Below are positions 6,107-23,500 of a DNA stretch of 64,000 nucleotides, piece after piece. The notes beneath the pieces are model-generated. The model was given only the letters and a program-made list of their open reading frames with translations. It searched no databases and had not been told where the DNA came from. Source of the stretch: Armatimonadota bacterium (GTDB lineage Bacteria; Armatimonadota; Zipacnadia; UBA1398; JAKPQA01). Each line of letters starts with the position of its first letter. The stretch's first letter is position 1. The position numbers were made by a program, and so were the translations under genes. Location: positions 1 to 64,000 of the forward strand of contig JAKPQA010000126.1 of assembly GCA_029547025.1 (NCBI GenBank), in the 5' to 3' direction.

Positions 6107-6109
6107 GGG

Positions 6110-7108: not shown

Positions 7109-8478
7109 GGCACCCGCTCCAAGAGACTCTGGACCATGGCACGGCACTGGGCCTCATCGACGGCGTCGAACGCCGCGACCACCCAGGCACCCGGGACCGA
7201 CTCCTTGGTAGCCGCGCCGGCCCAACGCCCCTGATCCCAGACGCCCACCCTCATGCCTTCAGTCGGAGCCACATCGGGTAGAACGACCTTCAGCAGACCC
7301 GCCAAGCCCGCCTCGGCCCGCGCACGGTCGGGGTACCGCACAGCCAGAGCCACCGGCCCTTCCTTGTCCGGCGGCAGTTTGGCCAGCACGCAGTCCGTGT
7401 CGGCATCCAGACCCAACAGGTTGTTGGTTGAGAGGTAGAACAGCGGGATCAAGTCCTTGTGCATGTGAAAGTAGTACCGCCGTGCGGGCTGGGGATCGAG
7501 ATCGGCGAAGACGTTGAGCATTGAGGGCTCGGGGCCGTTCACGCCGATGGTGTGGCTGATGGCTTCCGCGACCTCGAGCGCGGCGTCTCCCGCGCCCTCG
7601 CCCATCCATTCGGCCATGATCCGGCAGAAGTAGGGCCCCTGCCAGAACGTCACCTGCGGGCCCGTCGAGAATCCCCACCCGCCCACGTAGGCCGGCTCCT
7701 TGCCCTGGAACGCGCTCTGGACACCGTAGGCGTCGGCCGAGGTCGCTTGCTGGTACACGTCGGCGAGAACGGTACGGTCGCCCTTCTGGTACCGGCCCCG
7801 GTAGAAACGGACGAAATGGTAACGGATGTACTGATCGGCGGCGCCATCGATGGGGTCGTAGACTGTCTCCCTATCGTAGCCTTTGGCCGGCTCCGGGAGG
7901 CTCCAGTCGCCCGCCGTCTTCGGGTACACCAGCTCGGCTGCCGACCGCATCAGGCACGCAGCCTCCTGCGCCGCGGGCTGGTTAGCCGAAGCAGCGACGG
8001 CCACCCACGGCTGCCCATCGCGCTCGAACCGCGCGGCGCAGACGGCGCGGCCGTCGACGAAGGACTCAGCCCAAGTGCCTCCAGGACCGACCTCCTCGCC
8101 CACCAGATCGCCGACTGACTTCACCCAGGCCTTCTCCTGCGCCTCGGCAGTCCGGTACCGCCACGCAGCGAGCTCGACCTCGGACCCGAGGCACTCCCCC
8201 TGAGCCGAGAATCCCCGCGCCTGAGCGTCGGCGCCGATCCAGGCCACCCCAAGCTCGCCGACCTTGGACGCACTGAGTTGGCGCACCTGGGTCGGGCTGA
8301 GCGCTTCGGGAAACGGCATGTCCTGTCCGTCGCCCCGCACAGCCGCGGCAGCTCCCCGGGCGGCGAGAGGTCCCGGGTCCGCCGCCATGGAGCGGCGGCA
8401 GCACACGGAGGTGGCCAGGCAGACAGCGAGCATCACCACCGCGGTCGTGCGCAACGCCCAGCATCTGCAATTGCTCAT
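7105..8478 (-). CDS. Secreted protein of unknown function, DUF6599-like
   Basis: 457 aa with a signal peptide (hydrophobic residues 11-25, Ala-rich cleavage region near 32). The body has two similar halves, one ending near YDPIDGAADQYIRYHF and one near RRYYFHMHKDLIPLFYLS. I associate these with the DUF6599 family, from memory. No catalytic motif was recognised. It sits 4 nt after the DsbD/TauE-like gene and overlaps the polyferredoxin start, so it probably acts with them on the outer face of the membrane. Confidence 0.65.
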   Translation of the reverse strand: MSNCRCWALRTTAVVMLAVCLATSVCCRRSMAADPGPLAARGAAAAVRGDGQDMPFPEALSPTQVRQLSASKVGELGVAWIGADAQARGFSAQGECLGSEVELAAWRYRTAEAQEKAWVKSVGDLVGEEVGPGGTWAESFVDGRAVCAARFERDGQPWVAVAASANQPAAQEAACLMRSAAELVYPKTAGDWSLPEPAKGYDRETVYDPIDGAADQYIRYHFVRFYRGRYQKGDRTVLADVYQQATSADAYGVQSAFQGKEPAYVGGWGFSTGPQVTFWQGPYFCRIMAEWMGEGAGDAALEVAEAISHTIGVNGPEPSMLNVFADLDPQPARRYYFHMHKDLIPLFYLSTNNLLGLDADTDCVLAKLPPDKEGPVALAVRYPDRARAEAGLAGLLKVVLPDVAPTEGMRVGVWDQGRWAGAATKESVPGAWVVAAFDAVDEAQCRAMVQSLLERVP

Positions 8479-8482
8479 TCGA

Positions 8483-9187
8483 TCACCTCGCTGAACCCAG
8501 CAGTGCCGCCGCGCGGGCGACGAACCACATGCCGATGAACACGGCGGCGAACCTCGCGATACTGGCCACCACCCGGGGCGCCTTCGGATGCCCCAGCCAC
8601 GCCAGGGGCAGCGTCACCGCCGCCGTGCCAACCGCAAACGCCGCGATGAAAGCAGAGGCCTGGCCAGCATGCCCGCCGGCCAAAGTCGCGGCCGCAGTCA
8701 GCAGGGGGGGGCACGGGCTGAGCCCAACCAGCATCCCTGCGGCAGCCGGGAATCGCCTCAGAAGCTCCGTAAAGCCCCGGAGCTTACAGAAGCGTGCTCC
8801 GGGGATGTTCGCATGCACCGCATAGGCCAGCATCAGGCCGCCGAGCACAAGCAACGATACGGCCGAGGCCCCACGAACCCACGAGGCGTCCGGCAGGCGA
8901 GCCCCCAATGCCAGTGCCGTGCCGAGCACCAGGCAGTAGCCCAGGAGCCTGCCACCGCTGAACACCAGCGCGGCGCCGACGCCGTCCCTTGGCCGGTCCG
9001 TGTGGGTCGCCATGTAGGGTGCCAGAACTGGGAGACACGAACTGAGACATCCCAGAGCCATCGACAGGCCCAGTGCCGCTCCCTGCAGGGCCCCGAGCGA
9101 TGCGTTGGGATCCGGGCCGCTAGGGATGCGACTGCCTCCGCCATCGACAGGCCAGCGCGCCGAGAACGGCCGCCAGCGGCAAGGCAC
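8483..9187 (-). CDS. DsbD/TauE-SafE-like membrane protein
   Basis: About 234 aa and six membrane segments. The first helix carries CLSSCLPVLAPY and a later one GLSPCPPLLTA, the paired Cys-Pro motifs of the cytochrome c biogenesis CcdA/DsbD-2 family, often named sulfite exporter TauE/SafE. A role in moving reducing power or sulfur species across the membrane fits its redox neighbours but is inference. The start is uncertain: GTG 9185-9187 overlaps the upstream HEAT gene by 68 nt, and I saw no better in-frame start before the first helix. A run of eight G (8704-8711) lies inside the gene. Confidence 0.75.
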   Translation of the reverse strand: MPCRWRPFSARWPVDGGGSRIPSGPDPNASLGALQGAALGLSMALGCLSSCLPVLAPYMATHTDRPRDGVGAALVFSGGRLLGYCLVLGTALALGARLPDASWVRGASAVSLLVLGGLMLAYAVHANIPGARFCKLRGFTELLRRFPAAAGMLVGLSPCPPLLTAAATLAGGHAGQASAFIAAFAVGTAAVTLPLAWLGHPKAPRVVASIARFAAVFIGMWFVARAAALLGSAR

Positions 9188-10634
9188 TCAACAGCAGATA
9201 ATAGTCACCAAACCGCAGCACGCGCACACCCATCTCACCCACGGGCGCTGCTTGCTCCATCGAGGCCAACTGGATGCCCTTGTCAGTGCACGGCAGCGAG
9301 ACCATAACCGTCAGAGGCTGTTCAATCTCGTCAGCGGTCACTTCGAACGAGGTCGGTACCAGGTCGGCGGTGCCCGGCGTGGTCAACCGGACGCGCACAC
9401 CCACGGTGCCCGACTGCGCCGGCTTCAGGTCGGCCAGAACCACCGGGTCGCCCTCAACGGTGGTACCGGGACCCACTGGCCTGACGCGCACGTTGTGCAG
9501 CGGGCCCGGATAGCCGTTGTAGACCTCGAACTCCACCAGGCCGCCCTGAGCGCAGTTGGGCATGGGCACCTTTGGCTTGGCCACCAGCCGGTCCGCCGTG
9601 GCCGCAGCCAGAACCGGACCCGCCGCAGGCTTGGCAGTCGGGGCCACGGCCTCCGTTGCCTCGCCCGCGTCCTGCTTCTCCTGCCGCTCCGCCAGCGACA
9701 GGAGCGCGTCCCCGGCGAACACGACCAGGTCCGCGTCCCCCGAGCTCACGAGCTGGTCCAGGACCTTCAGCGCCTCGGTATCGTTCAGCCATGCGCAGCC
9801 CCAGGCTGCGGCGCAGCGCACCCACTGGTCGTCGAAGCTCAAGCCCTGGCGAAGGTAGTCGAGCGAGCCTTCGTCGCCCTGCCCGGCCAGGACGAGCGCC
9901 GTGTTCGCGCAGGCGTCGATGAACGGGTCACGGTGACCGGCCAGCGCCCGAACGGCATCGAGGTTCTCCTTGAGCAGACCGAGGGAAATACAGCTCATAC
10001 CCACGACCATGCCGTTGCGGTCCTGGAGCTTCGACAGAAGGAGTGGAGCCAGGGCCGGATTGCCGGAGCGGCCCGCGGCGTGGATCGCGCGATTGTACCC
10101 GTTGTTGATCAGCTCGGTCAGCTTGTCGACGCCCGCCTGGTTCTTCCGGCGGGCCAGCGACTCCGCGGCCAGGACGACGCACGAGGTGTTGTCATCACCC
10201 ATGGCGCGCAGAAGGTCCCGGTCGGACACCTCCCCCACCGGCTGCTGCCCCGAGTTCCCCCAGCCGATGTTGTCCGCCGCGATGGCGAACTTGAGGCTGT
10301 GTTTGCCCTGCGCCACCCCCTGGCCGGCGGACACGTTCACAGTGAACGCCTCTTTCTGGCCAGGCTTCATCTCCGGAATCGCCTGCGGCTCGATGCCCAC
10401 GTTGACCCCCGCCACACTGGCCTGCCCGAGTAGACGGACGTTCCTCAGCATGGTGGGGTAGTTATTGAGCACGAAGACGCGGAACTGATCCCCATTCTCG
10501 AAGACCGCCGCATCCTTCTCCGGTTTCACGATCACGCGGTCGGGAGTGCGGTAGATGTTGTTGCAGAGGTGAGCCTGGGCTGCCGTCAGTGCCAGCCCGC
10601 ACACGACAACGAGCGCGGTAGCACGGACCCTCAC
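9120..10634 (-). CDS. Exported, membrane-anchored HEAT-repeat protein
   Basis: 504 aa. The signal peptide covers residues 1-21. An N-terminal beta domain follows (VIVKPEKDAAVFENGDQF). Residues about 140-300 are alpha repeats of the HEAT/PBS type (units such as SCISLGLLKENLDAVRALAG). A second beta domain starts near 350 (GLVEFEVYNGYPGPLHNVRV, resembling the first), and a C-terminal anchor helix (YYLLLSALPLAAVLGALAC) ends the chain. This is a scaffold architecture with no enzyme motif. It is the first gene of the redox block and shares an overlap with the DsbD/TauE-like gene. Confidence 0.65.
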   Translation of the reverse strand: MRVRATALVVVCGLALTAAQAHLCNNIYRTPDRVIVKPEKDAAVFENGDQFRVFVLNNYPTMLRNVRLLGQASVAGVNVGIEPQAIPEMKPGQKEAFTVNVSAGQGVAQGKHSLKFAIAADNIGWGNSGQQPVGEVSDRDLLRAMGDDNTSCVVLAAESLARRKNQAGVDKLTELINNGYNRAIHAAGRSGNPALAPLLLSKLQDRNGMVVGMSCISLGLLKENLDAVRALAGHRDPFIDACANTALVLAGQGDEGSLDYLRQGLSFDDQWVRCAAAWGCAWLNDTEALKVLDQLVSSGDADLVVFAGDALLSLAERQEKQDAGEATEAVAPTAKPAAGPVLAAATADRLVAKPKVPMPNCAQGGLVEFEVYNGYPGPLHNVRVRPVGPGTTVEGDPVVLADLKPAQSGTVGVRVRLTTPGTADLVPTSFEVTADEIEQPLTVMVSLPCTDKGIQLASMEQAAPVGEMGVRVLRFGDYYLLLSALPLAAVLGALACRWRRQSHP

Positions 10635-10763: not shown

Positions 10764-11432
10764 CTACCTGAGCAACACGGCGCCGACGTGCAGCCAGTCG
10801 TAGAGGAGGAAGGTAACGCGGCCGATCAGCAGGGAGACGCGGGCCATCACGGTGTAGCCGAAGGAGGCGCCGAAGCTGAACATCAAAAAGTAGATACCCA
10901 GCTTGCAGAACCGGCCATAGCCGCCCGTGTGCTCCTTCGAGAAGAAGAAGTAGGCGAGCACCGAGAGCACGCCGATGATCAGCACCACGTTGCTGACGGA
11001 CGCCACCGCATTCTCCATCGCCGTGGCCTTGTCGAGCACAACCGGCGACACCATGGTGCCCTGGACCTGCTTGAGGATGTTCGCCTGGATGGTGGCCGGG
11101 ATCGACATGCCGGCGCCGATGCCGATCGTGAACGCCATGGGCCACCGAGAGAGCCACGAGATCTTCGGGTGAAATCGGGACAGCATGAGCACGCCGATGA
11201 CGGCCGGGATGAGCCGCAGCAAGTCGCCCTCATCGTGAATCGGTTTCCACAGGTCGGGTATGACCACATCGCGGTAGACGATCGCCAGGCCGTAGCCGGC
11301 GGAGACCCCCACGAACAGGGCCTCGACGAAGCGGTAGGCCGGGTTGTCCTTGTAAAGGAAGCTGTATGCAATCAGGGTCAGTAGCGCGGCGACCCAGACG
11401 CTGAAGACGTGCCAGAACCCCGGGTGCTCCAT
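10764..11432 (-). CDS. Polytopic membrane protein of the DUF6754 cluster (A)
   Basis: 222 aa, mostly hydrophobic, with about six membrane segments: residues 8-25, 33-52, 75-85, 95-112, 143-165 and 180-215. Short charged loops (YKDNPAYRFVEAL, KPIHDEGDLLR) lie between them. I recognise no named family. It begins 12 nt after the preceding membrane gene and is the last gene of the DUF6754 block, 129 nt upstream of the HEAT gene. It is probably a structural subunit of one complex with its neighbours. Confidence 0.7.
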   Translation of the reverse strand: MEHPGFWHVFSVWVAALLTLIAYSFLYKDNPAYRFVEALFVGVSAGYGLAIVYRDVVIPDLWKPIHDEGDLLRLIPAVIGVLMLSRFHPKISWLSRWPMAFTIGIGAGMSIPATIQANILKQVQGTMVSPVVLDKATAMENAVASVSNVVLIIGVLSVLAYFFFSKEHTGGYGRFCKLGIYFLMFSFGASFGYTVMARVSLLIGRVTFLLYDWLHVGAVLLR

Positions 11433-11444
11433 GCCGATCTGCCC

Positions 11445-12302
11445 TTATCCTCTCGGGCCGCGACGGGACGCGATGGACGCCACGTTGCCCAGGATGACCA
11501 GCGCGATGACGATCAAGTGAGCCACCGACTGCGAGTCCATACCGATCTGGCCATCGCCCGGTGCCTCGGTGAGCTGCTCATACTCGGCCGCCCCCTTGAG
11601 CCCGCCGAGAATGCCGATGAACTGCCCCGTCTGCAGATAAGGGTAGTAGGCGGCGACCATAACACCGGTAACGCCACAAGCCAAGTTGGCCTTGAACGCC
11701 TCGCGTGCGTAGCGGATCCAGATGTCCGGCGCCGCTGACGAGGCCAGATCCACCACAATGCCGATGTCGTCGTAGTTTCGGACTCCCTCGAGCGCTGGGA
11801 TCTCGCCGTACGGCTTGCCCTCGCTGTCCGTCGCGAACACCGTGTCGAGGCCGCCTCCGATGCCGAGGACCACGACGCCGCCCCCGGGCTTGTAGCCCAG
11901 GCTGACCCAGTCCTCATGCATCTTCTTGCCCAGATCCTTGCCCGCTTTCTCGAACGCCTTCCGGATGAGCAGGGCACCCGTGGGATCGAGCGTAACACCG
12001 ATGAGCCGGAGGTTCTTCTTGAAGCAGTGCCGGGCAATGGCCACCGCCATCGGGTCCAGCTCCGCTGCGGAGCCCGGACCGTAGTCGAACGAGATCATGA
12101 CGGGCTTCCGCTCGGGGAGCTTGTCAATGAAGTCATAGAGCTTCCTGGTGGGATCGGACGGCCGAACCCGGCAACCCAACGGGGTGAAGTAGGGGACCAC
12201 AACCCCGACGAACAGCACCAGGAAGATCCAGCGCCGGTCGATACGCTGGAGCCGAACCCAGAAGTCGCGGTTTCCCGACGCGGCGTCCGGAGTGTGAGAC
12301 AT
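11445..12302 (-). CDS. Membrane protein with Rossmann-like soluble domain, DUF6754 cluster (B)
   Basis: 285 aa. One membrane helix near residues 22-42 (WIFLVLFVGVVVPYFTPLG) and one at the C-terminus (HLIVIALVILGNVASI) bracket a soluble alpha/beta domain of about 200 residues. That domain has glycine-rich strands such as VVVLGIGGGLDTVFA and an acidic ISFDYGPGS. No catalytic motif was recognised. ATG 12300-12302 was preferred because it sits 5 nt after the upstream stop; longer in-frame starts lie inside that gene. Function unknown. Confidence 0.7.
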   Translation of the reverse strand: MSHTPDAASGNRDFWVRLQRIDRRWIFLVLFVGVVVPYFTPLGCRVRPSDPTRKLYDFIDKLPERKPVMISFDYGPGSAAELDPMAVAIARHCFKKNLRLIGVTLDPTGALLIRKAFEKAGKDLGKKMHEDWVSLGYKPGGGVVVLGIGGGLDTVFATDSEGKPYGEIPALEGVRNYDDIGIVVDLASSAAPDIWIRYAREAFKANLACGVTGVMVAAYYPYLQTGQFIGILGGLKGAAEYEQLTEAPGDGQIGMDSQSVAHLIVIALVILGNVASIASRRGPRG

Positions 12303-12307
12303 CCGGA

Positions 12308-13009
12308 TCAGCTCCCACTCATGTAGGGGCGCTCGATCCCCACGATGATTCGCAGCGCCTGGGCTACGGCCGCCAGGGCGGCACCGAACATGATGGCGCG
12401 CTGGGCGGCCGTGTTCGGGCAGTTGAGCACCCATTCCGTTAGCGACTGGAGCCACTCGGGTGTCACCGGCGCCGTCGTCGACCCGCCCCAGATGGCCTCA
12501 TGGAGCTTGGCGCCGATCTCGACACCCAACGGGACCCGGCCGACCATCACCAACAGCGCGGCGGCAAGCAGGAGGCTGGCCTCGAAGGTTCTCGCCCGGA
12601 ACGTCCGATAGGCGGCCGATGCGATGAAAAACGCCAGCAAAGAGAAGATGGTCGCGTCCATGGGAACCTGCACGTTGTCGAACAGCCACTGGTAGCACCG
12701 GTCGAGCGTATGCCTCCACGCAGGGGCGGCGGCCTCCTTTGTCCCCAGAATCCCAAACACGGCCATCACGGCGAACCCCGCCAGAGTAACGATGGCGTAG
12801 ATCCATCCGGGCGAAAGCCGCCGCAGCTTGCTGATGTTAATCGAGACCAGGCTGCCGATCCCCACGACCAATGCAAAGGCGCTGATGATGCGGGTCCACG
12901 CCAGAAGCGTGTCCCGCAGGGCCATCGAGTGATGGGTCGGCACAAAGAACTGGATCACCATGACGACACCGGCGATGAACGCGATGGCAACCGGCACTTG
13001 AGTCCGCAT
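12308..13009 (-). CDS. Polytopic membrane protein of the DUF6754 cluster (C)
   Basis: 233 aa with about six membrane segments: residues 6-23, 36-57, 68-88, 115-133, 140-157 and 200-220. A soluble loop of about 25 residues (KLHEAIWGGSTTAPVTPEW) precedes the last segments. No known family was recognised. It lies 20 nt after the second DUF6754 gene and 5 nt before cluster gene B, so the three are almost certainly one transcript. Likely a membrane subunit of the same assembly. Confidence 0.7.
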   Translation of the reverse strand: MRTQVPVAIAFIAGVVMVIQFFVPTHHSMALRDTLLAWTRIISAFALVVGIGSLVSINISKLRRLSPGWIYAIVTLAGFAVMAVFGILGTKEAAAPAWRHTLDRCYQWLFDNVQVPMDATIFSLLAFFIASAAYRTFRARTFEASLLLAAALLVMVGRVPLGVEIGAKLHEAIWGGSTTAPVTPEWLQSLTEWVLNCPNTAAQRAIMFGAALAAVAQALRIIVGIERPYMSGS

Positions 13010-13029
13010 GGGCTTCGCGGTGCCTCCGT

Positions 13030-14421
13030 TTACCTAGTCTCGAACAGCGATATGAACTTGAGCATCCAACTGGTCTCGGGCAGATGCAGGATCTGCCCCA
13101 GGCCCGCGAAGACCACGCCGCACACGAGGGCAGCCGCCACCGCCATCTTCAGCCAATCCTGCGCCTTGAGGCTACCCAGCAGGCGCGGCTCTCGGGTCAG
13201 ATAGGCCGTGGCGGCATAGAGCTCCTCGCCCATCAGTGTGTAGTCGCATGTCGTGACCAGAAACGGCAACTGCATGACGGCGTCCGTGCCCGCGATCTGA
13301 ATGCACCCGGCCATGGCGCCAGCCTCGGCCAGGATCAGTGCCTCGGCGTAGAAGTACCCCATATAGAAGCACGCCGCCGGCCGCTCGCGGGCCATGGTGC
13401 CGGCCACCGAGGCCACATAGGCGAACTGGGAGTCCGTCGTGAAGTAGATGTCATCCTCGACATATGCATCGGGCTTGCCGGCCTCGAGATAGGACTCCTT
13501 GACCACTTCGCGCTGGGCCGTCATGACCATGGGATCGCGACACGGCACGAGAATCCGTGTGCCCTGCTCAGCTGCCGTGCGACCGATGCGGCCAAGAATG
13601 GCCATGGCGGCCACGGTGGCGATATCGCTCACCCCACCGAGACCGGCCACGAACAGCAGAGGACGACCCATCTCGGTCGCGCGGCCGATGGCATCGTCAA
13701 CCGCCTTGAGGCCAGCGATAGGCCGCACGTAGAAGTCACGGCCGCGGCGCGCAAAGCCGAGGAACCCCAGCACCACGATCGTGCACAACACGGTGCCAAC
13801 AAGCACATTGATCTGATCGCGGTCGAGCCAGTACTCGCGCGGCGTGACAGGCCCTGCCCGTGACGGGGCCGACTCCTCGTAGCGCCCCTCGCTCAGCCCG
13901 AAAGCGGCGACCTCATAGTAGTACTGGCCCCGCGGGTCCGCGCGCACCGGCGCCGGGTCCGTGGGAATCCCGGCCGACGGCTCCGCGGCAGGCCCTTGGC
14001 CGCCCGGCGAGGGGGGCGCTGACTCGGGCGGTTCCCGATCCTTGGACTTCCAACTGAATGACGAATCCGTGAACTTCCCTTCACCCTTGGTGAATACGCG
14101 CCCCACCACAACATAGGGGCCATCGGGGGCCTCAGCGCGACGGACCACATAGCCCATAACGCGCTGGCTGTCGGGGGCGTCATCAGGCGAAGGCCGCCAG
14201 CTGAGGTCGATGGCGGTGGCGTCGTCGTTGGGCTTGTCCTTGGCCTCAACTGCCGCCGGCGGAGCGAGGGGCAGCTCCGCCGGAGCGAGGGGAGGGAGCT
14301 CGGCGACGGGAACGCTCACGCTGGGAGCTTCGCGGGGCGCGGGCGGCTCGACTCCTGACGCCGCCGCACTGGCCCACAGCAGCAGAGCGACTCCGCCCCC
14401 TAACACGGACCGTTTCGGCAC
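13030..14421 (-). CDS. FN3-TM-DUF6754 protein, paralogue 2
   Basis: 463 aa. Signal peptide 1-22, Pro/Ala-rich linker, then a fibronectin-III-like domain (about 62-195) starting KPNDDATAIDLSW. A membrane helix (205-223) leads to a cytoplasmic domain of about 200 residues with RPIAGLKAVDDAIGRATEMG, which I associate with DUF6754. A last helix near 430-450 ends the protein. GTG 14419-14421 is preceded by GGGGAGG; the frame stays open upstream, but only through the decayed cassette described separately. Sequence and layout match the gene at 14892, so they are duplicates. Function unknown; a heteromeric membrane complex is inferred. Confidence 0.78.
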   Translation of the reverse strand: MPKRSVLGGGVALLLWASAAASGVEPPAPREAPSVSVPVAELPPLAPAELPLAPPAAVEAKDKPNDDATAIDLSWRPSPDDAPDSQRVMGYVVRRAEAPDGPYVVVGRVFTKGEGKFTDSSFSWKSKDREPPESAPPSPGGQGPAAEPSAGIPTDPAPVRADPRGQYYYEVAAFGLSEGRYEESAPSRAGPVTPREYWLDRDQINVLVGTVLCTIVVLGFLGFARRGRDFYVRPIAGLKAVDDAIGRATEMGRPLLFVAGLGGVSDIATVAAMAILGRIGRTAAEQGTRILVPCRDPMVMTAQREVVKESYLEAGKPDAYVEDDIYFTTDSQFAYVASVAGTMARERPAACFYMGYFYAEALILAEAGAMAGCIQIAGTDAVMQLPFLVTTCDYTLMGEELYAATAYLTREPRLLGSLKAQDWLKMAVAAALVCGVVFAGLGQILHLPETSWMLKFISLFETR

Positions 14422-14496
14422 ACCGCACCTCCCCGTCACATTGGCCGGTCTTGCTGCCCGGAGTGTATTCAGCGAGGCCCGGGGCAGACCTTCAGA

Positions 14497-14513
14497 GGCA
14501 GATGGCAGATGGC
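14497..14513 (+). repeat. Left arm of perfect 17-bp inverted repeat
   Basis: GGCAGATGGCAGATGGC, itself two tandem GGCAGAT units plus GGC. Its exact reverse complement is at 14875-14891. The two arms bracket a decayed four-helix-bundle gene. Confidence 0.9.
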
Positions 14514-14536
14514 AGCCGCAGGCGGAGCCAATCCCG

Positions 14537-14812
14537 CTAGCGGTGAGTTCGGGGGACAGATCGGGCGAGGTCATTGGCCCGGCGCCCCGCCTCTCCGGCA
14601 AGCTCACCGACCTGCGTGGCTCACTCGGCACTCAGGTAGCCGCGGCGTCGGGCCACAAACGCCTGCGTCTCGACCTCGCGGTGCGGCACATCTGGCCCGT
14701 GAGCCCACAGATCTCGTCGCGCGGGACGTCCCGCGTCATCCTGTAGACGACATCAACCAAGTCCATCGCTTTGCGCCAAGCAACCAGATCCCGCTGGTCT
14801 CTTGCCGGCAAC
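14537..14812 (-). pseudogene. Decayed four-helix-bundle (23S rRNA IVP / Avd-like) gene
   Basis: Read on the minus strand from a TTG at 14810-14812, the frame gives RDLVAWRKAMDLVDVVYRMT and then RDVPRDEICGLTGQMCRTA, the first two helices of the IVP family (usually about 120 aa). After 14678 the match jumps to the C-terminal helix in another frame: EVETQAFVARRRGYLSAE, a TGA at 14621-14623, then VGELAGEAGRRANDLARSV to a TAG at 14537-14539. About 35-40 middle residues, including the usual IPxNIAEG turn, are gone. The gene is therefore frameshifted, deleted and interrupted. The family match is from memory of its consensus. Confidence 0.75.
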
Positions 14813-14874
14813 TCGGGCCCCCCCCACCCTGACTCGCCAGCGCCTCCAACGCCGAGCCTACCGCGCTTCGTCTA

Positions 14875-14891
14875 GCCATCTGCCATCTGCC
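14875..14891 (-). repeat. Right arm of perfect 17-bp inverted repeat
   Basis: GCCATCTGCCATCTGCC on the plus strand, the exact reverse complement of 14497-14513. It directly abuts the TAG stop (14892-14894) of the DUF6754 gene upstream in transcription, so the 395-bp unit 14497-14891 fills the gap between two cluster genes. Confidence 0.9.
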
Positions 14892-16214
14892 CTACGCCCC
14901 GCCCATCCACTGAGAGAAGCGAGGGAACCACGAGTCGGGCGGCAGGTGGAACACATGGGTCAGTAGGGCGCCGGCAACACCCAAGAGAATGACGGCACCG
15001 ACAGCAAACTTGAGCCAGTCCTGCGCCTTGAGACTTCCGAGAAGCCTCGGCGCGCGCGACACGTAAGCGGTGGCGGCGTACAGCTCCTCGCCCATGAGCG
15101 TGTAGTCACACGCCGTGACGAAGAACGGTAGCTGGAACACCTGATCGGTGCCGGCGATCTGGATGGCGCCCGTGAGCGCGCCGGTCTCGGCCAGGATCAG
15201 GGACTCGGCCTCGAAGTAGCCGAGGTAGAAGCACGCCGCGGGCCGATCCCGCAGCATGATGCCGGTGACCATGGCGGCATAGGCGAATTGCGCGTTGCTC
15301 TGGAAGAACAGGTCCTCTTCGCGGTAGGCCTCTGGCCGTCCAGCCTGGGCGTACGCGTCGCGGACAACCTCCCGCTGGGCGCTCATGATGAGCGGATCGA
15401 TGTTGGGCACCAGAATGCGCGTGCCCTGCTCGGCAGCCAGACGGGCAATCTGTCCCAACAGCACCGTTGCGGCCATCGTCGGCGCGATGCTGTCGATGAG
15501 CGTCGACGAGCCCATCCCGGTGGAGTAGAGGATCGGCTTGCCCATCTCGGTGGCCCGGCCCACCGCATCGTGCAGGGCTTCGAGCCCCGGGATGGGCCGG
15601 ATGTACAGGTCACGCGTGCCGGCATGGCGGATCAGGAAGAGGACCATCCCCGCGCATAGGGTCAACACCAGTAGGACGCTGCCCCGGGTCGTGTCGAACC
15701 CGGTCTCGACGGGCCGCACGGGTCCGGCGGTCACGGGGGCCGACTGGCTGCGTTCGCTCAGGGCCCTGACGCGGTACCAATGCGGCTGGGCGGGGTCGGC
15801 CAGCCGGGGCCCCTCCCCACGCTCCTTGGCCCGCTCGGACGGCTTCCAGCTATAGGCGCTGTCCGTGAACGTGGCCGTACCGCGACCGACACGGCCCACT
15901 TCATCGAACGGTCCGTCGGCGCCGGCGGACCGCTCGACCACGTAGCCGGTGACGCGGCCCGCGGGCCCGTCGTCCTCCGAAAGCTCCCACGACAGGCACA
16001 GGGCTGTGGCGTCATCGTTGGGCTTGTCCCGCACGGTCAGCGCAAGGGGTGGAGCCGGCTCGACCGCCTCGGCGGTCGAGGTCCGGCCCGGGGCAGGACC
16101 GGTCCCGCCCACGGGGATCAGTACCTGCGCGTTCGACTGCGCGGTGAAAAGCCAGGCCCAGCCCAGGATGGAGATGCAGATCAGCCACGCCCGCCAAGCC
16201 GCCCGCATGGGCAT
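14892..16214 (-). CDS. FN3-TM-DUF6754 protein, paralogue 1
   Basis: 440 aa. Signal peptide or anchor 1-29; FN3-like domain about 60-170 starting near KPNDDATALCLSW; membrane helix 179-196; cytoplasmic DUF6754-like domain about 200-395 with RPIPGLEALHDAVGRATEMG and RLLGSLKAQDWLKF; last helix about 403-422. It aligns along its length with the gene at 13030 but has a shorter linker. It starts 24 nt after the barrel-sandwich/KOW gene. A second ATG two codons downstream is an equally possible start. Role unknown; probably pairs with its paralogue and the three polytopic proteins. Confidence 0.78.
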   Translation of the reverse strand: MPMRAAWRAWLICISILGWAWLFTAQSNAQVLIPVGGTGPAPGRTSTAEAVEPAPPLALTVRDKPNDDATALCLSWELSEDDGPAGRVTGYVVERSAGADGPFDEVGRVGRGTATFTDSAYSWKPSERAKERGEGPRLADPAQPHWYRVRALSERSQSAPVTAGPVRPVETGFDTTRGSVLLVLTLCAGMVLFLIRHAGTRDLYIRPIPGLEALHDAVGRATEMGKPILYSTGMGSSTLIDSIAPTMAATVLLGQIARLAAEQGTRILVPNIDPLIMSAQREVVRDAYAQAGRPEAYREEDLFFQSNAQFAYAAMVTGIMLRDRPAACFYLGYFEAESLILAETGALTGAIQIAGTDQVFQLPFFVTACDYTLMGEELYAATAYVSRAPRLLGSLKAQDWLKFAVGAVILLGVAGALLTHVFHLPPDSWFPRFSQWMGGA

Positions 16215-16238
16215 CTCCCTGCTCCGATGCGACTCGAG

Positions 16239-17360
16239 TCAGCGGATCAGCTCGATGTTGGCCCGAGGGAGGGTCACGGCAACGCCGTCCTCCGTCTGGA
16301 CGGTAACCACCCGCACGTGTGCCTCGGTCTCGATGCGCGTCAGTTCGGGCGGCAGAGCGATGACGCGGGCCAACCGACCGAAGTGGGGCTCGCGGATGAT
16401 ACGAACGGTATCGCCGGCCTGGATGCCGCCCGAAGCCGCCTCCTCCGCCCCCCCGGCTGCGAGCCCGTCGCCGAACGGGATGACCACCTCGGGGCGCACG
16501 ACGCCCGCCCGGATCTGAGTGGCTCCGTCGATGCTGGCCTTGGCCCCCTCGCGGCTCTTGAGGAGATCGAATGTCCTCTGGGCCATGCGGATCTCGCCGA
16601 AACCCTCGGTGAGCACCAGGGTGAACGGTGTGTCCTCCTGGCCCGTAATGGCGACGCCCAACGGATAGCCCAGCAGATGGTCAACGCCGTCGCTCCCGAC
16701 GCCACCGACAACCAGGCCAGCGAGGCCGATCTCCTTGGCGCGCTCGAGGGCCGCGCGTGTGGCCAGGCATCCTCCCACCGCGATGGTCCCGGACAGGCTG
16801 TCGTCCAGGCTCGAGCCATCGAGAACCGCGTCGGGCGAGTCGACGGCCATGCGGAGCTCGGCCACGCGCTCGCCCCCGACACCCAGGATCCCCTGGACGA
16901 ACGTGGCCACCGTCTCGATGACAACGCCCTGTCCTTCGATGCACTCGGCCACCCGACCGTCGACGTAGGCGGTGATCTCCACGGGCTTGGGAGGACGGCG
17001 GACTCGCACCTGCCCGGTCACGGAGGAGATGCCCTCGATGACGCCAGCCGCCGGCGCGGTGCACTCCGACTTGAACAGCCCCAGAAACGATGACGAACGG
17101 GCGATAACCTCGCCGGCCTCGACCGAGTCGCCCTCGCCCTTGAGCATGTGCTGGGCCACTTCGCTGGGAGGCACCGAGAGCTTGTGGGCCACGTTCACCA
17201 GGTCGACATCGCCCGGAAGCTCGGTTCGCGCCACCACGTCTTCGGCTCGGACGGTCTGGCCTTCGGAAACCACAACCTGCCCGTCGAGTGGGAGACGGCG
17301 CTCCTTACGTACGGTCTGACGCTCCACCACGCGGAGCTCGGGTGTGTAGGCGTGAGCCAT
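16239..17360 (-). CDS. Barrel-sandwich-hybrid / KOW-like protein of the DUF6754 cluster
   Basis: 373 aa, soluble, no signal peptide. Residues about 20-150 look like a barrel-sandwich (biotinyl/lipoyl or RnfC-like) domain: LPLDGQVVVSEGQTVRAEDV, then KGEGDSVEAGEVIARS and CTAPAAGVIEGI. No lipoyl/biotinyl Lys motif is visible. The middle (about 185-270) is Rossmann-like, with GLAGLVVGGVGSDGVDHLLG. The C-terminus is KOW/NusG-like (GDTVRIIREPHFGRLARVI). ATG 17358-17360 follows GGGAG. It is the first gene of the block after the PilZ gene and could be a cytosolic hub of the complex (inference). Confidence 0.65.
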   Translation of the reverse strand: MAHAYTPELRVVERQTVRKERRLPLDGQVVVSEGQTVRAEDVVARTELPGDVDLVNVAHKLSVPPSEVAQHMLKGEGDSVEAGEVIARSSSFLGLFKSECTAPAAGVIEGISSVTGQVRVRRPPKPVEITAYVDGRVAECIEGQGVVIETVATFVQGILGVGGERVAELRMAVDSPDAVLDGSSLDDSLSGTIAVGGCLATRAALERAKEIGLAGLVVGGVGSDGVDHLLGYPLGVAITGQEDTPFTLVLTEGFGEIRMAQRTFDLLKSREGAKASIDGATQIRAGVVRPEVVIPFGDGLAAGGAEEAASGGIQAGDTVRIIREPHFGRLARVIALPPELTRIETEAHVRVVTVQTEDGVAVTLPRANIELIR

Positions 17361-17532
17361 GCGGTCACTCTCCCTGTTCGCTGGAGAGGTTCGCTCGCGA
17401 CGCGCCAGCGGCCTGCTTGCGCGGGCGGGGTGAGACGGGCGAACGCGCGCGGCCCGGGTCCGCTCAAAGGTGAGGCGCTCTTGAGGTTGGCCTGGGGCCC
17501 TTGGTGCCTGAACGGCCAGGCCCGAGATGAGT

Positions 17533-18360
17533 CTACTCGGCGGCCACCGACGGCACGCGAGCCTGCACGAACTGCGAGAGCTCGTCGGCCGCAGCCGGGG
17601 GGACCTCCTGGAACTCGAATGCGGCAGCCTCACCACCGACGCGGCCGGGCTCGATCCGAACGACGCGGGCGGGCAGGTCGAGGATGGTGTGGCCAGACTC
17701 GGTGCGAATCGCCCGGGCCGAGCGATCCGTGTCAGTGGTCATCAGATAGCTCTCGAGGTCGGCAATCCGCTGCTCGCTGGCGATGCCCGAAGCCGGAAGA
17801 TCGAACACCACCCGAGCACTGCGTCCCACGGTGAGCAGGGTGGTGCCGCCCACGGGAGGGGACGGGAAGTCGGCGAGAATGCCACCCACGCTCACGTTAA
17901 GGGCACGGCCACGCACGGGGTGCGCCCGGCCGAAGTAGTCGCTGAGGAAGACGGCGCAGCCCTGGTGCTCCACCGAGGCGCGGGGTTTGGTGCGGCGCTG
18001 CCGAACGATGACGTTCGTGGGAAACGAGGTGCGCAAGGCCCAGGCAGCGGACCCGGACACCACGGTGCGCCTCGCGTCGAGCACCACGCACTCGAACTCG
18101 TAGGGGACCGCCGCCACCGTACATCGGAGCCGGCAGTCGGCGCCCCGGGCGATGGTCAGGGCGTCGTTCTCCCGCGACGACCCGACGACCACCAGGGCGT
18201 ACCCGGGAACCGCAGCCACGAGGCGCCCCACCAGTGGCGACTCGGCACACTCGGCAGCGGGCGCCACCTCGATGGCCACACTCCCCCGCTTCGCGGCGAC
18301 CAGGACCTCCTGGATCCTGGCAGCCTCGCCCACTTCCGATCCGTTCCGCAACGGCATCAT
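17533..18360 (-). CDS. PilZ-domain protein, YcgR-like
   Basis: 275 aa, soluble. The N-terminal half (to about 140) resembles the YcgR/FlbN-type domain (GADCRLRCTVAAVPYEFECV). The C-terminal half is a PilZ domain: the Arg-rich RQRRTKPRASV is the RxxxR-type element and NVSVGGI the D/NxSxxG element, both needed in the family to bind c-di-GMP. ATG 18358-18360 follows GGTGG; a TTG five codons upstream is an alternative. It is divergent from the DUF6785 gene and 172 nt upstream of the barrel-sandwich gene, so it may link the DUF6754 block to c-di-GMP (inference). Confidence 0.75.
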   Translation of the reverse strand: MMPLRNGSEVGEAARIQEVLVAAKRGSVAIEVAPAAECAESPLVGRLVAAVPGYALVVVGSSRENDALTIARGADCRLRCTVAAVPYEFECVVLDARRTVVSGSAAWALRTSFPTNVIVRQRRTKPRASVEHQGCAVFLSDYFGRAHPVRGRALNVSVGGILADFPSPPVGGTTLLTVGRSARVVFDLPASGIASEQRIADLESYLMTTDTDRSARAIRTESGHTILDLPARVVRIEPGRVGGEAAAFEFQEVPPAAADELSQFVQARVPSVAAE

Positions 18361-18528: not shown

Positions 18529-20529
18529 ATGGCCGTTCAATCCAGTGACCATCTCCCGGACAAGCTGACCGCTGGAACGACACAGACGCCCCGAAGACCC
18601 GGTGTCACGCCCCGCATACTGCTTCTCTGCATCCCCCTCATAGTCGTCAACAACTACTGGGTCATGCAGACCGAGACCATTCGGTACGCGGGTTTCCCGA
18701 CCACAATATCACTCTATTATAATGTCGTTTTCATCCTGTTGACCATGGTTTTTGTGAACCGGGTGGTGTCTCGTCTCGCCCCCCGATGGTCCTTGTCGCA
18801 TGGCGAGCTGGCCGTAGCGTATACCATCCTGTGCCTGGCCTCCAGCACCTGCGGCCACGACGCGATCCAGGTGCTCACGCCGATCCTAACACACCCCTTT
18901 CGTTTCGCCGATGACGCCAATCAGTGGATGAGCCAGTTCGGTGAATACCTGCCGCGCTGGGCCATGATGTCAGACCCTACGTCCCTCAAGAACCTCTATG
19001 AGGGCGGCTCAACGCTCTACGCGGAGGGGAACTGGAGCACCTGGACACGGCCGGTGGCGGCCTGGGTCGCCTTCATCACCGCGCTCTACCTGGTCACCCT
19101 CTGCATCAACAGCCTGTTCCGCCGCCGATGGGTGGAGTCGGAAAGGCTGACCTACCCCATCATCCAGCTCCCCCTCGAGATGACCCGGCCCGGGTCGCGC
19201 ATCTTCTGGAACAAGTACATGTGGTTGGCGTTCGCGTTGGCACTGACGTTGGACGTGCTCAACGGCCTCAAGATGTTCTACCCATCCGTGCCGGGCATCC
19301 CCGTCAAGGTGGCCTCGATTCCCCAGTTCAACATTGGCGCTCAAGTGGTGGACCGGCCGTGGAACGCCATCCAGAACCTGGGGTCGGTGTACGTCTCGTT
19401 CTACCCCTTCGCCATCGGCCTGGGCCTGCTGCTACCCACGGAGCTCGCTTTCTCGTGCTGGTTCTGGTACTTCTTCTGGCGCGCCGAGATGGTGGTCGTC
19501 AGCGCATTCGGGTGGACCTCCATCGCAGGCTTCCCGTTCGTAAATGAGCAGACGTTCGCGGGCTATCTTGCCCTGGGCGGGTTCGCGGTCTGGACCAGCC
19601 GCGGCTATCTCCGTCAGGTGCTGCGCTCCGCGGTGCGCCTCAAAGGAGACCCCGACGGCAGCCGTGAGGCTCTGCCGCATGCGGCGAGTCTCGTGCTGGG
19701 CCTGGCCGGGTTTGCGTTCCTCGTCGGGTTCTCCATGCGCGCGGGGGCCACCCTGTGGTACGCGGTGTCCTTCTTCGTGATCCACTTCGGACTAGGCTTC
19801 GCGGTGACCCGCATCCGGGCGGAGATGGGGCTTCCCGCCCATGACCTCCACCATGCCGGGCCGGGACAGATCCTGTACCGCGTGCTCGGTGGGTTCATCA
19901 TCCCCAAACCGAGCCAGACGGTGGGGCAAATCTACTATTGGTTCAACCGGGCATACCGGTCCTACGCGTCACCCCACCAGGCAGAGGGATTCAAGCTGGC
20001 CGAGAGAACAGGCACGAGCGTGCGGGCCTTGTTCCCGGTGATGGCGTTGGCCGTGGCGCTCGGATCGCTCGCATCGTTCTGGGCGATCCTGCACCTGGGG
20101 TACCAGGATGGCTTCGCCGCCAAGGTGGCCGAGCCGAAGGTCAGTCTCATTTTCGGCCGTGAGCCATACGACGAACTGGTGGCCCATCTGAACGCGCCCG
20201 AACGGCCGAGTCTGCCCGCCGTGTGGGCCATGGTGGTTGGGTTCGTCACGGTGTTTGGGCTGATGCACCTGAAGACCCGTGTGCTCTGGTGGCCCTTCCA
20301 TCCGGTCGGGTTCGCCGTCTCGGCGAGCTGGGCGATGCAGCACTTGTGGTGCCCCCTGTTCCTGGCATGGGGGGCCAAGTGGACTCTGACGCGCTACGGC
20401 GGGCACTCGGCGTTTCGCCAGGCCGTACCGTTCGCGTTTGGTTTGATACTGGGGGACTTGATCGGCGGCAGCTTCTGGACCATCTACGGCATCGCCAAGC
20501 ATGTCGCCACCTATTCGATCTGGGTGTAG
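18529..20529 (+). CDS. DUF6785/DUF6784-type large polytopic membrane protein
   Basis: 666 aa with about 14 hydrophobic segments. Conserved-looking stretches are VNNYWVMQTETIRYAGFPTT near the N-terminus, RWVESERLTYPIIQLPLEM, VNEQTFAGYLALGGFAVW and a C-terminal FHPVGFAVSASWAMQHLWCP. I associate the N- and C-terminal halves with DUF6785 and DUF6784, families common in Armatimonadota, Hydrogenedentota and Planctomycetota and of OPT-like appearance. The next gene begins 5 nt downstream. Transport is likely; the substrate is unknown. Confidence 0.78.
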   Translation: MAVQSSDHLPDKLTAGTTQTPRRPGVTPRILLLCIPLIVVNNYWVMQTETIRYAGFPTTISLYYNVVFILLTMVFVNRVVSRLAPRWSLSHGELAVAYTILCLASSTCGHDAIQVLTPILTHPFRFADDANQWMSQFGEYLPRWAMMSDPTSLKNLYEGGSTLYAEGNWSTWTRPVAAWVAFITALYLVTLCINSLFRRRWVESERLTYPIIQLPLEMTRPGSRIFWNKYMWLAFALALTLDVLNGLKMFYPSVPGIPVKVASIPQFNIGAQVVDRPWNAIQNLGSVYVSFYPFAIGLGLLLPTELAFSCWFWYFFWRAEMVVVSAFGWTSIAGFPFVNEQTFAGYLALGGFAVWTSRGYLRQVLRSAVRLKGDPDGSREALPHAASLVLGLAGFAFLVGFSMRAGATLWYAVSFFVIHFGLGFAVTRIRAEMGLPAHDLHHAGPGQILYRVLGGFIIPKPSQTVGQIYYWFNRAYRSYASPHQAEGFKLAERTGTSVRALFPVMALAVALGSLASFWAILHLGYQDGFAAKVAEPKVSLIFGREPYDELVAHLNAPERPSLPAVWAMVVGFVTVFGLMHLKTRVLWWPFHPVGFAVSASWAMQHLWCPLFLAWGAKWTLTRYGGHSAFRQAVPFAFGLILGDLIGGSFWTIYGIAKHVATYSIWV

Positions 20530-20534
20530 GGACG

Positions 20535-23500
20535 ATGCAGATGCGCATGGGCCCTCGAACGGTGTTGTGGGCGGGCTTGGCCCTGTGTCTTGCCGCGGGA
20601 GCGGCGCGCGCCGCGACGGATATCGCTCAATTCGTTCGACCGGTGCGACCCGCTGCGATTGAGAAGACCATCGAGGACCTGTCCGCCTTGGGTAGTCGCG
20701 TGGCTGGCTACCCGGGTGCAGATCAGGCCGCGCGGTACGTCCTGAACCAGTTCCGAACGCTGGGGCTCAGGAACGTTCGAACCCAAGCGTTCCCGGTGAC
20801 GGTACCCGTGACTCGGCACGCGTGGGTCCGCGTCCGGGCGGGAGGTGTCGATCGCCGCCTCGACATCTATCCCCTCTGGCCCAACCGCGTGCGCACCTGC
20901 CAGACTCCCCCCGCTGGGCTCACCGGACCCCTGGTCGACGGAAAGTCCGGCGAGTTCACGGACCTCAACGGGCACGAGATCGCCGGCAGCATCCTGATCG
21001 TGGACTTCAACAGCGAGACCCGCTGGTTCAACGGACCGCTACTGGGTGCCCAGGCGGTGCTCTTCCCAGAGCCCGACTCCGTCAGCCGGGGCGAGGCGGA
21101 ATCCAAGTTCCTCTCACCTCCGGCCAGCATGCCGCGGTTCTGGGTGAAAAAGGACGACGCGCGCTGGCTCCGCGAGTTGGTTGCGCGCGAGGACAACGTG
21201 TCCGCCACCGTATGCGCGGATGTGCGCTGGGAGCGGCGCACCGCCTACAACATTCTGGGCGAGGTCCTGGGCACCAACGCGGAGTATGCGAAGGAGCGCC
21301 TGGTCCTGGAGTCTTACTACGACTCGATGTCCGTCGTGCCCGATCTGGCACCCGGCGCCGAGTCCGCCTGCGGCATCGCCGCCCTGCTCGAGATCGCGCG
21401 ATGCTTCGCGCAGAGCCCGCCCGAACGGTCGATCCTGTTCCTCGCCACGTCGGCCCACTTCGAGGCACTGGGAGGCACCCGGGAGTTCCTCCGACTCCAC
21501 CGCGAGGCCGGATGGAGCACGCCCTACAATGCAAGCATTCCCGCGGCCGACTCGTCGGTCCAGGTGCGAGTGCACCTGAACCCCGAGGGCGAGAAACCCC
21601 TACCGGGGACCGGCGACACTGGCGACGCGAACCCCGCCGCGGGCACCAAGTATCCCACCGTAAGCCTCCGCCTGGGCGCCGGGGCCATGATCAAGCCGGG
21701 CCAGGACACACTCACCATTCGGAGCAAACTGGCCGACGCGCCATTCTCGGCCACCATCTCGCTGACCGATCCCGCCGGCTGGGAGCGCGAGGACGAGTTT
21801 GGCAGGTGGGTGAAAGCAGAGCAGGCTCCCGCCGCCGTCGATAACCGCCTCAGCGGCGACGCCATCCAGTACCGCTACATGACCGAGTGGTCCGGTGCCC
21901 CAGAGCTCCTGGGAAGCCGGGACTTCAAGGTCACTCCGGCCCTGGATTTCGAGGAGGCCTCCGCCCCGGGCGATGACGCCAAGCCCCCCAAGATCACGGC
22001 CTTCATCAGCATCGACCTCAGCAGCCGCAGTGACCTGATGTGCGTGTTCTACAAGGGCCACTTCTACAACATGAACGAGGCCCAGCAGTGGAAGTACTCC
22101 GACTTCGGGAAATCGTGTACGACCTTTGCGGGCCAGGTGGAGAGTGCCCTGGGCATCTCAGCCAGTGCGCACTTCGCGGACGCCATCAACTCGATCACCG
22201 GCAGCAACTGGAAGTCGTATCTGCCGTGCCGGCTGGCCATGGACTTCGAGCAGGCCGCCGTGGCTTCCGAAGTGGCGGTCGGTTTTGCCACGGCCAACGA
22301 TATGCGGGCGCTGGTCGACACACCCATGGATGTGGCGGAGTCGGTCGACACCGGCAGTGTGACCCTCCAGACGCGTCTGCTGGCCGGTCTGCTGCACGCC
22401 ATGCTCGCTAAAGGCACCACGGGGGACAAGTCGGACCCGGCGGACTTGGGCGGCCTCGACTTCGCCCGCAAGACCAAGCCGCTGACCCTTGACGCGGATC
22501 TGTGGTGCGTGATCGATGGCAACATCGTCTACTTTGACCCCACCCAGGACTACTACCCCAACGAACCCGTGCCGGGGGCTATCGCCTTCGCCCGAGGCCC
22601 CGCCAAAACCAGTGCGGGCGTGCGTGGCGACATCCTGCAGATGGTGGGGCACGATGGCCGGTTCACCTTCCACGGCGTCCCCATGAGCAAGATTGCCTAC
22701 TACGGCTTCGGCATGGAGGGATTCCTCCTCCGGCCCGAAGACGGCGAGATCATCATGGCCCCCGACCTCGGCCAGTCGGGTGCTCAGGCCTTTCCGATCG
22801 ACCAGGTGCCCGATGCCCAGCAGAAGACCATCCGCGTGGTGGTGTTCCCCTGCAAGGCCATGAGCCTCTATGACCTGGTTGACCAGCGTCAGTTCATGTT
22901 CCTGAACACGGTGTCGGTGCTCAACGCCGTATCCAACGCCTCACCCTTCTCGTGGGGCATGAGCCTGCCCGAACCGTCGCGTCAGTGGCAGTCGTACCTG
23001 GAGCCCGTGGCCGTCGTCTATGGCAAGAGCGGCGAGCAACTGAAGTTCGGCTTCGGACTCTCTGTACTCGGGAACCGGTTTCTGCTGCTGAACGGGACGC
23101 GGGACGACCCGATGGGCAAGGGGTACGACCTGGGCCAGAACCCGATCCTGTACCCTCTTCCCCGGCGGGTGGCCGAGGACATGTGGTACCTCAACGAGTC
23201 CCGCATCGAGACGCTTCGAGGGTACGGGATCAAGAACAAGCGTATGGAAGAGCTCCACGCCGGCGCGTGGGAAGCCCTCGCTCAGGCCGATGCGGCTCGA
23301 AAGGCACTGCGCTACGACGAGTTCTTCCGATACCTGCGCGAGGCGCTGGGCTACGAGACCAAAGTCTACCCCGATGTCATGAAGACCACCATGGACGTGG
23401 TCAAGGGCGTCATCTTCTACCTGGCACTTCTCCTGCCGTTCTCGTTCTTCTGCGAGCGGCTCTTTTTCGCATCCATGACCATGGGCCGACAGATCCTCGG

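What the first reader, a model, noticed from the sequence alone, without database searches (positions are those of the whole stretch)
10764..18360. Candidate undescribed envelope complex: DUF6754 pair, three membrane proteins, barrel-sandwich/KOW protein, PilZ
Seen: seven consecutive co-directional genes, most spaced 5-25 nt. They encode a PilZ protein, a soluble barrel-sandwich + Rossmann-like + KOW-like protein, two full-length paralogues of FN3-TM-DUF6754-TM layout, and three polytopic proteins (one with a 200-residue soluble alpha/beta domain). Known: PilZ domains bind c-di-GMP; FN3 domains are extracellular; barrel-sandwich domains serve as hubs in Rnf-like and transport complexes. Inference: the paralogues form a heteromeric membrane core with extracellular FN3 arms, the soluble protein docks inside, and c-di-GMP may control it. 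It could be an export, polysaccharide or ion-translocating machine. No catalytic motif identifies it.
Basis: partly seen in the sequence, partly recalled or inferred. Interest (0 to 1): 0.75.

Follow-up and report, generated by a model that had tools for sequence, protein, structure and literature searches.

The report
Widespread uncharacterised bacterial membrane-complex operon
Six of these seven genes belong to a membrane machine that more than ten poorly studied bacterial phyla share, that nobody seems to have described, and that probably works with a separate ATP-binding protein of the actin/Hsp70 fold; its job in the cell is still unknown.

Summary
In detail: seven minus-strand genes encode PilZ, a barrel-sandwich protein (S), two FN3-DUF6754 paralogues (D1, D2), two six-TM proteins (B, A) and a TM-alpha/beta-TM protein (T). 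Six are not a local curiosity. D-B-T-A is a fixed cassette: 101 of 112 DUF6754 genes examined are followed by B, T, A in that order, in Armatimonadota, Zixibacteria, WOR-3, Planctomycetota, Latescibacterota, Poribacteria, Cloacimonadota, Fermentibacteria and others, often as 2-3 tandem cassettes. S precedes D wherever its downstream side was seen (33/33). D, M and S are lost together in 15 Armatimonadota genomes, 13 of which were checked and keep PilM and Omp85. M and S are sometimes fused. Glutamate-mutase subunit E, M's textbook partner, is missing from 47 of 48 genomes. PilZ and the D1/D2 pair are specific to this genome. No Pfam family fits A, B or T; S has only domain-level hits. No solved structure or held paper fits. 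Most likely an inner-membrane complex regulated or energised by M through S; what it moves, builds or senses is open.

The parts
10764..11432 (-). A: 6-7 TM protein with no Pfam family (222 aa), last gene of the D-B-T-A cassette
   Evidence: order conserved in 101 of 112 cassettes
11445..12302 (-). T: TM - extracytoplasmic Rossmann-like alpha/beta domain - TM (285 aa), no Pfam family
   Evidence: AF2 pLDDT 95.2; no PDB fold match at E<=1e-3; topology from flanking charges
12308..13009 (-). B: 6 TM protein (233 aa), no Pfam family; conserved ATMFSLLAFFIASAAYRAFRAR segment
13030..14631 (-). D2: signal peptide, FN3, TM, cytoplasmic DUF6754 domain, TM (start codon uncertain)
   Evidence: PF20539 4.9e-107; alignment; sister of D1
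14892..16214 (-). D1: FN3-TM-DUF6754-TM (440 aa)
   Evidence: PF20539 2.1e-96; AF2 pLDDT 88.6; FN3 fold matches
16239..17360 (-). S: cytosolic barrel-sandwich + alpha/beta + KOW-like protein (about 373 aa), the most conserved window-encoded part (mean column identity 56%)
   Evidence: fused to M in Fermentibacteria L089
17533..18360 (-). PilZ-domain protein; adjacent but not a conserved member of the system
   Evidence: PF07238 7.8e-06; no homologue at other loci

Best explanation
S, D1, D2, B, T and A, together with M and C encoded on another contig, are one inner-membrane complex. SHOWN: fixed gene order across phyla, co-loss of D, M and S, M-S fusion, invariant ASKHA phosphate motifs in M, predicted topologies and folds. 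INFERRED: D, B, T and A form the membrane core, with D's DUF6754 domain in the cytoplasm and D's FN3 arms and T's Rossmann-like domain outside. M is a cytosolic ATP-binding ASKHA protein that docks through S (and C) on D's cytoplasmic domain. Its nucleotide cycle drives or gates a conformational change passed through A/B to the outside domains. One M-S pair usually serves several cassettes (one to six D copies per genome outside Armatimonadota), as in shared-motor modular systems, and the variable FN3 arm sets what each cassette acts on. Transport or assembly of envelope material is my preferred output, but no data here identify it. Confidence that this is one functional system is about 0.9; the figure below is for the whole mechanism.
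For: 101 of 112 D genes with room are followed by B, T, A in order, and S is followed by D in 33/33. D-B, B-T and T-A gaps have medians of 13, 1 and 3 nt. M precedes S in 25/33. P-C-D-B-T-A-M-S lie in one run in L148. M-S fusion in L089. D/M co-occurrence over 291 genomes: 240/12/15/24, Fisher p 1.9e-16 (not corrected for phylogeny). S is absent from exactly the 15 tested genomes lacking both D and M, plus one other, while PilM and Omp85 are in all 33 genomes tested, including 13 of those 15. Outside Armatimonadota S is in 20/23 and M in 21/23 genomes chosen for carrying D. Mirror-tree r 0.78-0.87 among D, T, B and A. Tandem cassettes group by position across species. M's ASKHA motifs are invariant in 29 sequences.
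Against: No physical interaction, ATPase activity or substrate has been shown. M, S and C are often encoded away from D-B-T-A, including (for M and C) in this genome. Three of 23 D+ genomes in other phyla lack a detectable S, and two lack M. No catalytic motif was found in D or T. ASKHA proteins can be scaffolds or sensors rather than motors. D and T share secondary-structure order but not detectable sequence homology.
Confidence: 0.42

Rival explanations
1. A structural scaffold: M is a PilM/FtsA/GspL-like ASKHA adaptor that positions a static inner-membrane platform (D-B-T-A) tying the cytoplasm to the cell wall, surface layer or outer membrane through FN3 arms; no transport.
For: ASKHA proteins PilM, GspL and FtsA are membrane-platform adaptors (established knowledge). 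FN3 arms of very variable length, 32 to 786 residues before the DUF6754 motif, suit a tether. No transporter or enzyme signature in A, B, T or D.
Against: Conserved charged and polar residues inside A and B, and a high-confidence Rossmann-like domain outside, are unusual for a mere tether. PilM itself is present in all 33 genomes tested, so M is not a replacement for it.
Confidence: 0.25
2. A transmembrane sensory hub: FN3/T ectodomains sense an external ligand and the DUF6754 domain relays it to M-S in the cytosol; paralogous cassettes read different signals.
For: One M-S with several cassettes of differing ectodomain; ancient paralogous cassettes; in WOR-3 the cassette is followed by a DUF4388-like gene and other small genes (family named from the sequence, not tested).
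Against: Two six-TM proteins and T are more membrane apparatus than a sensor needs; no output domain (kinase, cyclase, transcription factor) is conserved nearby.
Confidence: 0.18
3. One reading: a c-di-GMP-controlled export or polysaccharide machine with a D1/D2 heteromeric core.
For: A PilZ domain lies upstream and contains an N-x-S-x-x-G-like motif in the sequence.
Against: PilZ is absent from all other loci and separated by 172 nt; D1/D2 is a lineage-specific duplication; no glycosyltransferase or exporter family is conserved with the cassette.
Confidence: 0.05
4. Ion- or electron-translocating complex of the Rnf/Nqr kind, S being the RnfC/NqrA-like docking subunit.
For: S matches RnfC_N and NQRA_N barrel-sandwich models.
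Against: No conserved Cys/His ligand sets in A, B, T, D or S; no Rnf/Nqr subunit matches A, B or T; ASKHA partner instead of a dehydrogenase.
Confidence: 0.05
5. M is an ordinary glutamate-mutase (GlmL) or other B12-enzyme chaperone and its neighbourhood with S/D is incidental.
For: M matches PF13941 MutL at 4e-126.
Against: GlmE is absent from 47 of 48 genomes, and the one exception (G213) has a second, shorter GlmL-length copy; M-S fusion, adjacency and co-loss with D.
Confidence: 0.03

Closest known systems
GlmL/MutL (PF13941), ASKHA chaperone of glutamate mutase
   Same: M is homologous over the whole 450-residue model
   Different: M is ~600 aa with a C-terminal extension, its partner is S/D rather than GlmE, and GlmE is absent
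RnfC / NqrA barrel-sandwich subunits
   Same: S shares the barrel-sandwich domain
   Different: No redox-ligand signatures, no other Rnf/Nqr subunits, plus KOW-like end and ASKHA partner
Type IV pilus / type II secretion inner-membrane platforms (PilM or GspL with membrane partners)
   Same: ASKHA cytosolic protein with a multi-protein inner-membrane assembly (by analogy only)
   Different: None of A, B, T, S matches a platform family; the same genomes carry PilM separately
ECF transporters (logic only)
   Same: One shared energising pair can serve several membrane modules
   Different: No ABC ATPase; no homology found; transport not shown
DUF6754 (PF20539)
   Same: D1 and D2 are members
   Different: The Pfam entry is a domain of unknown function; no description of the operon was found in the held papers

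Membership tests
DUF6754 (PF20539) | Match to the model over the curated cut-off across its length | tested here: met
   D1 322 bits, D2 357 bits, cut-off 27
Glutamate mutase system (GlmL) | MutL/GlmL-like ASKHA protein | tested here: met
   M in G000:C167, 771 bits to L039 M; PF13941 4.4e-129
Glutamate mutase system (GlmL) | GlmE (PF06368) partner in the genome | tested here: not met
   Absent in the window genome and in 47 of 48 genomes
Rnf/Nqr complexes | Barrel-sandwich subunit | tested here: met
   RnfC_N in 18 of 26 S members, best 1.6e-06; weak in the window's own S
Rnf/Nqr complexes | Fe-S/flavin binding sites and the other subunits | tested here: not met
   No conserved Cys/His sets; no matching families for A, B, T
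Type IV pilus / T2SS platform | PilM/GspL-type ASKHA with PilN/PilO/PilC-type membrane proteins | tested here: not met
   A, B, T, S do not match those families; PilM occurs independently of the system
c-di-GMP (PilZ) regulated complex | PilZ gene conserved with the operon | tested here: not met
   No PilZ homologue at the other loci
Fibronectin type III | FN3 fold in D | tested here: met
   PDB profile matches and Foldseek E about 1e-5; FN3 region absent in other Armatimonadota classes
ECF-type modular transporter | ABC ATPases and vitamin-specific S component | not tested
   No ABC family appeared among the parts; transport not testable here

The most novel reading that the evidence does not exclude
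A new class of ATP-driven envelope machine in which an actin/Hsp70-fold (ASKHA) protein, instead of an ABC, AAA or P-loop ATPase, energises several interchangeable membrane cassettes (D-B-T-A) through a barrel-sandwich coupler.
Probability: 0.3. Interest if true: 0.92.

Novelty: categorically new. Interest (0 to 1): 0.74.

Why it matters
A seven-part system whose DUF6754 protein is found in 252 of 291 Armatimonadota genomes and in more than ten other, mostly uncultured, phyla must do something important, yet A, B, T, C and S have no family model of their own and D is a DUF. It gives a function-bearing context to DUF6754 and to the many proteins that carry the MutL (PF13941) model, shows that the model marks a protein other than a glutamate-mutase chaperone in these genomes, and gives a defined set of parts for structure prediction, co-purification and deletion.

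Tried and rejected
PilZ control and D1/D2 heteromer: not conserved. D-T homology: both are TM-alpha-(beta-alpha)6-TM, but profile comparison scores no better than a reversed decoy. Profile-profile links among A, B, T, D, S, M, C, P: none. PDB searches with A, B, T, S profiles and the M sequence: nothing significant. Foldseek of D returned only FN3 hits, so its DUF6754 fold remains unassigned; T has only weak Rossmann-like hits, E about 5e-3. The HEAT gene downstream (9120-10634) is not conserved; its 'H' labels are profile drift onto T. Link to type IV pili or an outer membrane: PilM and Omp85 are universal in the test set, so uninformative for function but good quality controls. Viral contigs: no relative of D2. 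Literature: nothing on the operon.

Full report
OBSERVATION. The seven genes are present, open and on the minus strand. PF20539 (DUF6754) matches both D2 and D1; PilZ is just over its cut-off; A, B and T have no Pfam or NCBIfam family, and the window's own S shows only sub-threshold barrel-sandwich and KOW hits. Start codons chosen here put four junctions at 5-24 nt, with 172 nt between PilZ and S and about 260 nt between D1 and D2.

PLACE. The window is contig C154 of a 6.3 Mb, 96%-complete genome. Contigs of same-class relatives equal in length to named records (G247:C10 and JAUWAU010000004.1, both 316,182 bases; G277:C173 and JALGTS010000018.1, both 9,580 bases) show the phylum to be Armatimonadota and its class to include MAGs labelled Candidatus Zipacnadia.

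NEIGHBOURHOOD. 252 of 291 genomes of the phylum carry DUF6754. The order D-B-T-A is fixed: 101 of 112 D genes with room downstream, the exceptions being mostly contig ends, overlapping ORFs or duplicated T; median gaps are 13, 1 and 3 nt. S lies upstream of D in 33/33 cases with room. Clustering of flanking genes revealed conserved partners: M, a ~600-aa MutL-like ASKHA protein (PF13941); C, a ~110-aa protein; and P, a ~150-aa two-TM protein. The fullest order is P-C-M-S-D-B-T-A; in L148, of another class, it is P-C-D-B-T-A-M-S. In Fermentibacteria M and S are one protein (L089). In the window's own genome C and M sit together on contig C167. PilZ, the HEAT gene and the genes beyond are not conserved.

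RANGE. Record titles include Armatimonadota, Zixibacteria, WOR-3/Stahlbacteria, Edwardsbacteria, Eisenbacteria, Latescibacterota, Planctomycetota (including Scalindua and Brocadiaceae), Poribacteria, Fermentibacteria, Cloacimonadota, CSSED10-310, Coatesbacteria and TA06. The 14 well-known control genomes have no DUF6754.

CO-OCCURRENCE. Across 291 Armatimonadota genomes D and M are both present in 240, both absent in 24, and discordant in 27 (Fisher p 1.9e-16, not corrected for shared ancestry). S was sought in 69 of these genomes: it is missing in exactly the 15 tested genomes without D and M, plus G078, and present in nine D-negative M-positive genomes, whose D may be lost in assembly gaps. 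PilM and Omp85 are in all 33 genomes of a control set that includes 13 of the 15, so the absences are not poor assemblies. In 23 genomes of other phyla chosen for D, S is in 20, M in 21, and D has one to six copies. GlmE, the textbook partner of MutL/GlmL, is absent in 47 of 48 genomes, so M has another role here.

EVOLUTION. D1 and D2 of the window are sisters (support 0.90), a local duplication of D alone. D, T, B and A distances correlate at r 0.78-0.87 over 115 cassettes (shared species history contributes). In Zixibacteria, first, second and third tandem cassettes group by position across species in both D and T trees (support for the third group is weak in D), i.e. ancient, specialised paralogues.

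ANATOMY. AF2 of D1 (pLDDT 88.6): signal peptide, FN3, TM, six-strand alpha/beta domain, TM. AF2 of T (pLDDT 95.2): TM, six-strand Rossmann-like domain, TM. Flanking charges put D's alpha/beta domain inside and T's outside. T has no PDB fold match at E<=1e-3. S is the most conserved window-encoded part, 56% mean column identity, with barrel-sandwich and KOW signatures. M's three ASKHA motifs (DCGSTTTK, DIGGATTD, GSGG) are essentially invariant. Conserved Cys/His sets that could bind redox cofactors are lacking in A, B, T, D and S. The FN3 arm is optional: D of other Armatimonadota classes has only 47-56 residues before the DUF6754 motif, while Cloacimonadota D has up to 786.

READING. One functional system is well supported (about 0.9). 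The ATP-driven or ATP-gated mechanism follows from the ASKHA fold and the M-S-D links, but no binding or turnover was measured; the output (transport or assembly, tethering, sensing) is unknown. Novelty rests on the absence of families, structures and papers in the libraries searched here; work in subscription journals or preprints could have been missed.

Noticed in passing
L089:17861-20623; G302, G303, G304 matches of 920-973 aa: M and S fused in one polypeptide in Fermentibacteria and apparently Cloacimonadota genomes, beside a separate standard pair.
   Followed up: partly
L063, L064, L072, L076, L092, L100, L125, L132: Zixibacteria-type genomes carry two or three tandem D-B-T-A cassettes, each position an ancient paralogue group.
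   Followed up: yes
L123:220-3204; L127:7859-10783: Cloacimonadota D proteins of about 1000 aa with a ~700-residue region before the DUF6754 domain.
   Followed up: no
L071:14231-14575, L076:12855-13202 and six more loci: A ~110-aa very basic protein (YQRRYYxMHKEKAKEYQRQYNLTHKKK) follows the cassette arrays in Zixibacteria.
   Followed up: no
L044:10831-12651; L093:11472-13486: T is duplicated in tandem within the cassette.
   Followed up: no
L045, L049, L050, L051 and others: P, a ~150-aa two-TM protein with a PH-like look, lies upstream of C; possible further member.
   Followed up: partly
window 18529-20529 (+): DUF6785/DUF6784 membrane protein, divergent from the operon.
   Followed up: no
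window 20223-25553 (+): Very long ORF combining an M28 peptidase-like region and an FtsX-like permease region.
   Followed up: no
window 4961-9187 (-): 2-hydroxyglutaryl-CoA dehydratase D-like gene next to a polyferredoxin, a DUF6599 gene and a DsbD-like membrane gene.
   Followed up: no
G004 and G213 (phylum search): Second, canonical-length MutL (467-483 aa) beside the long form; G213 also has a GlmE match.
   Followed up: no
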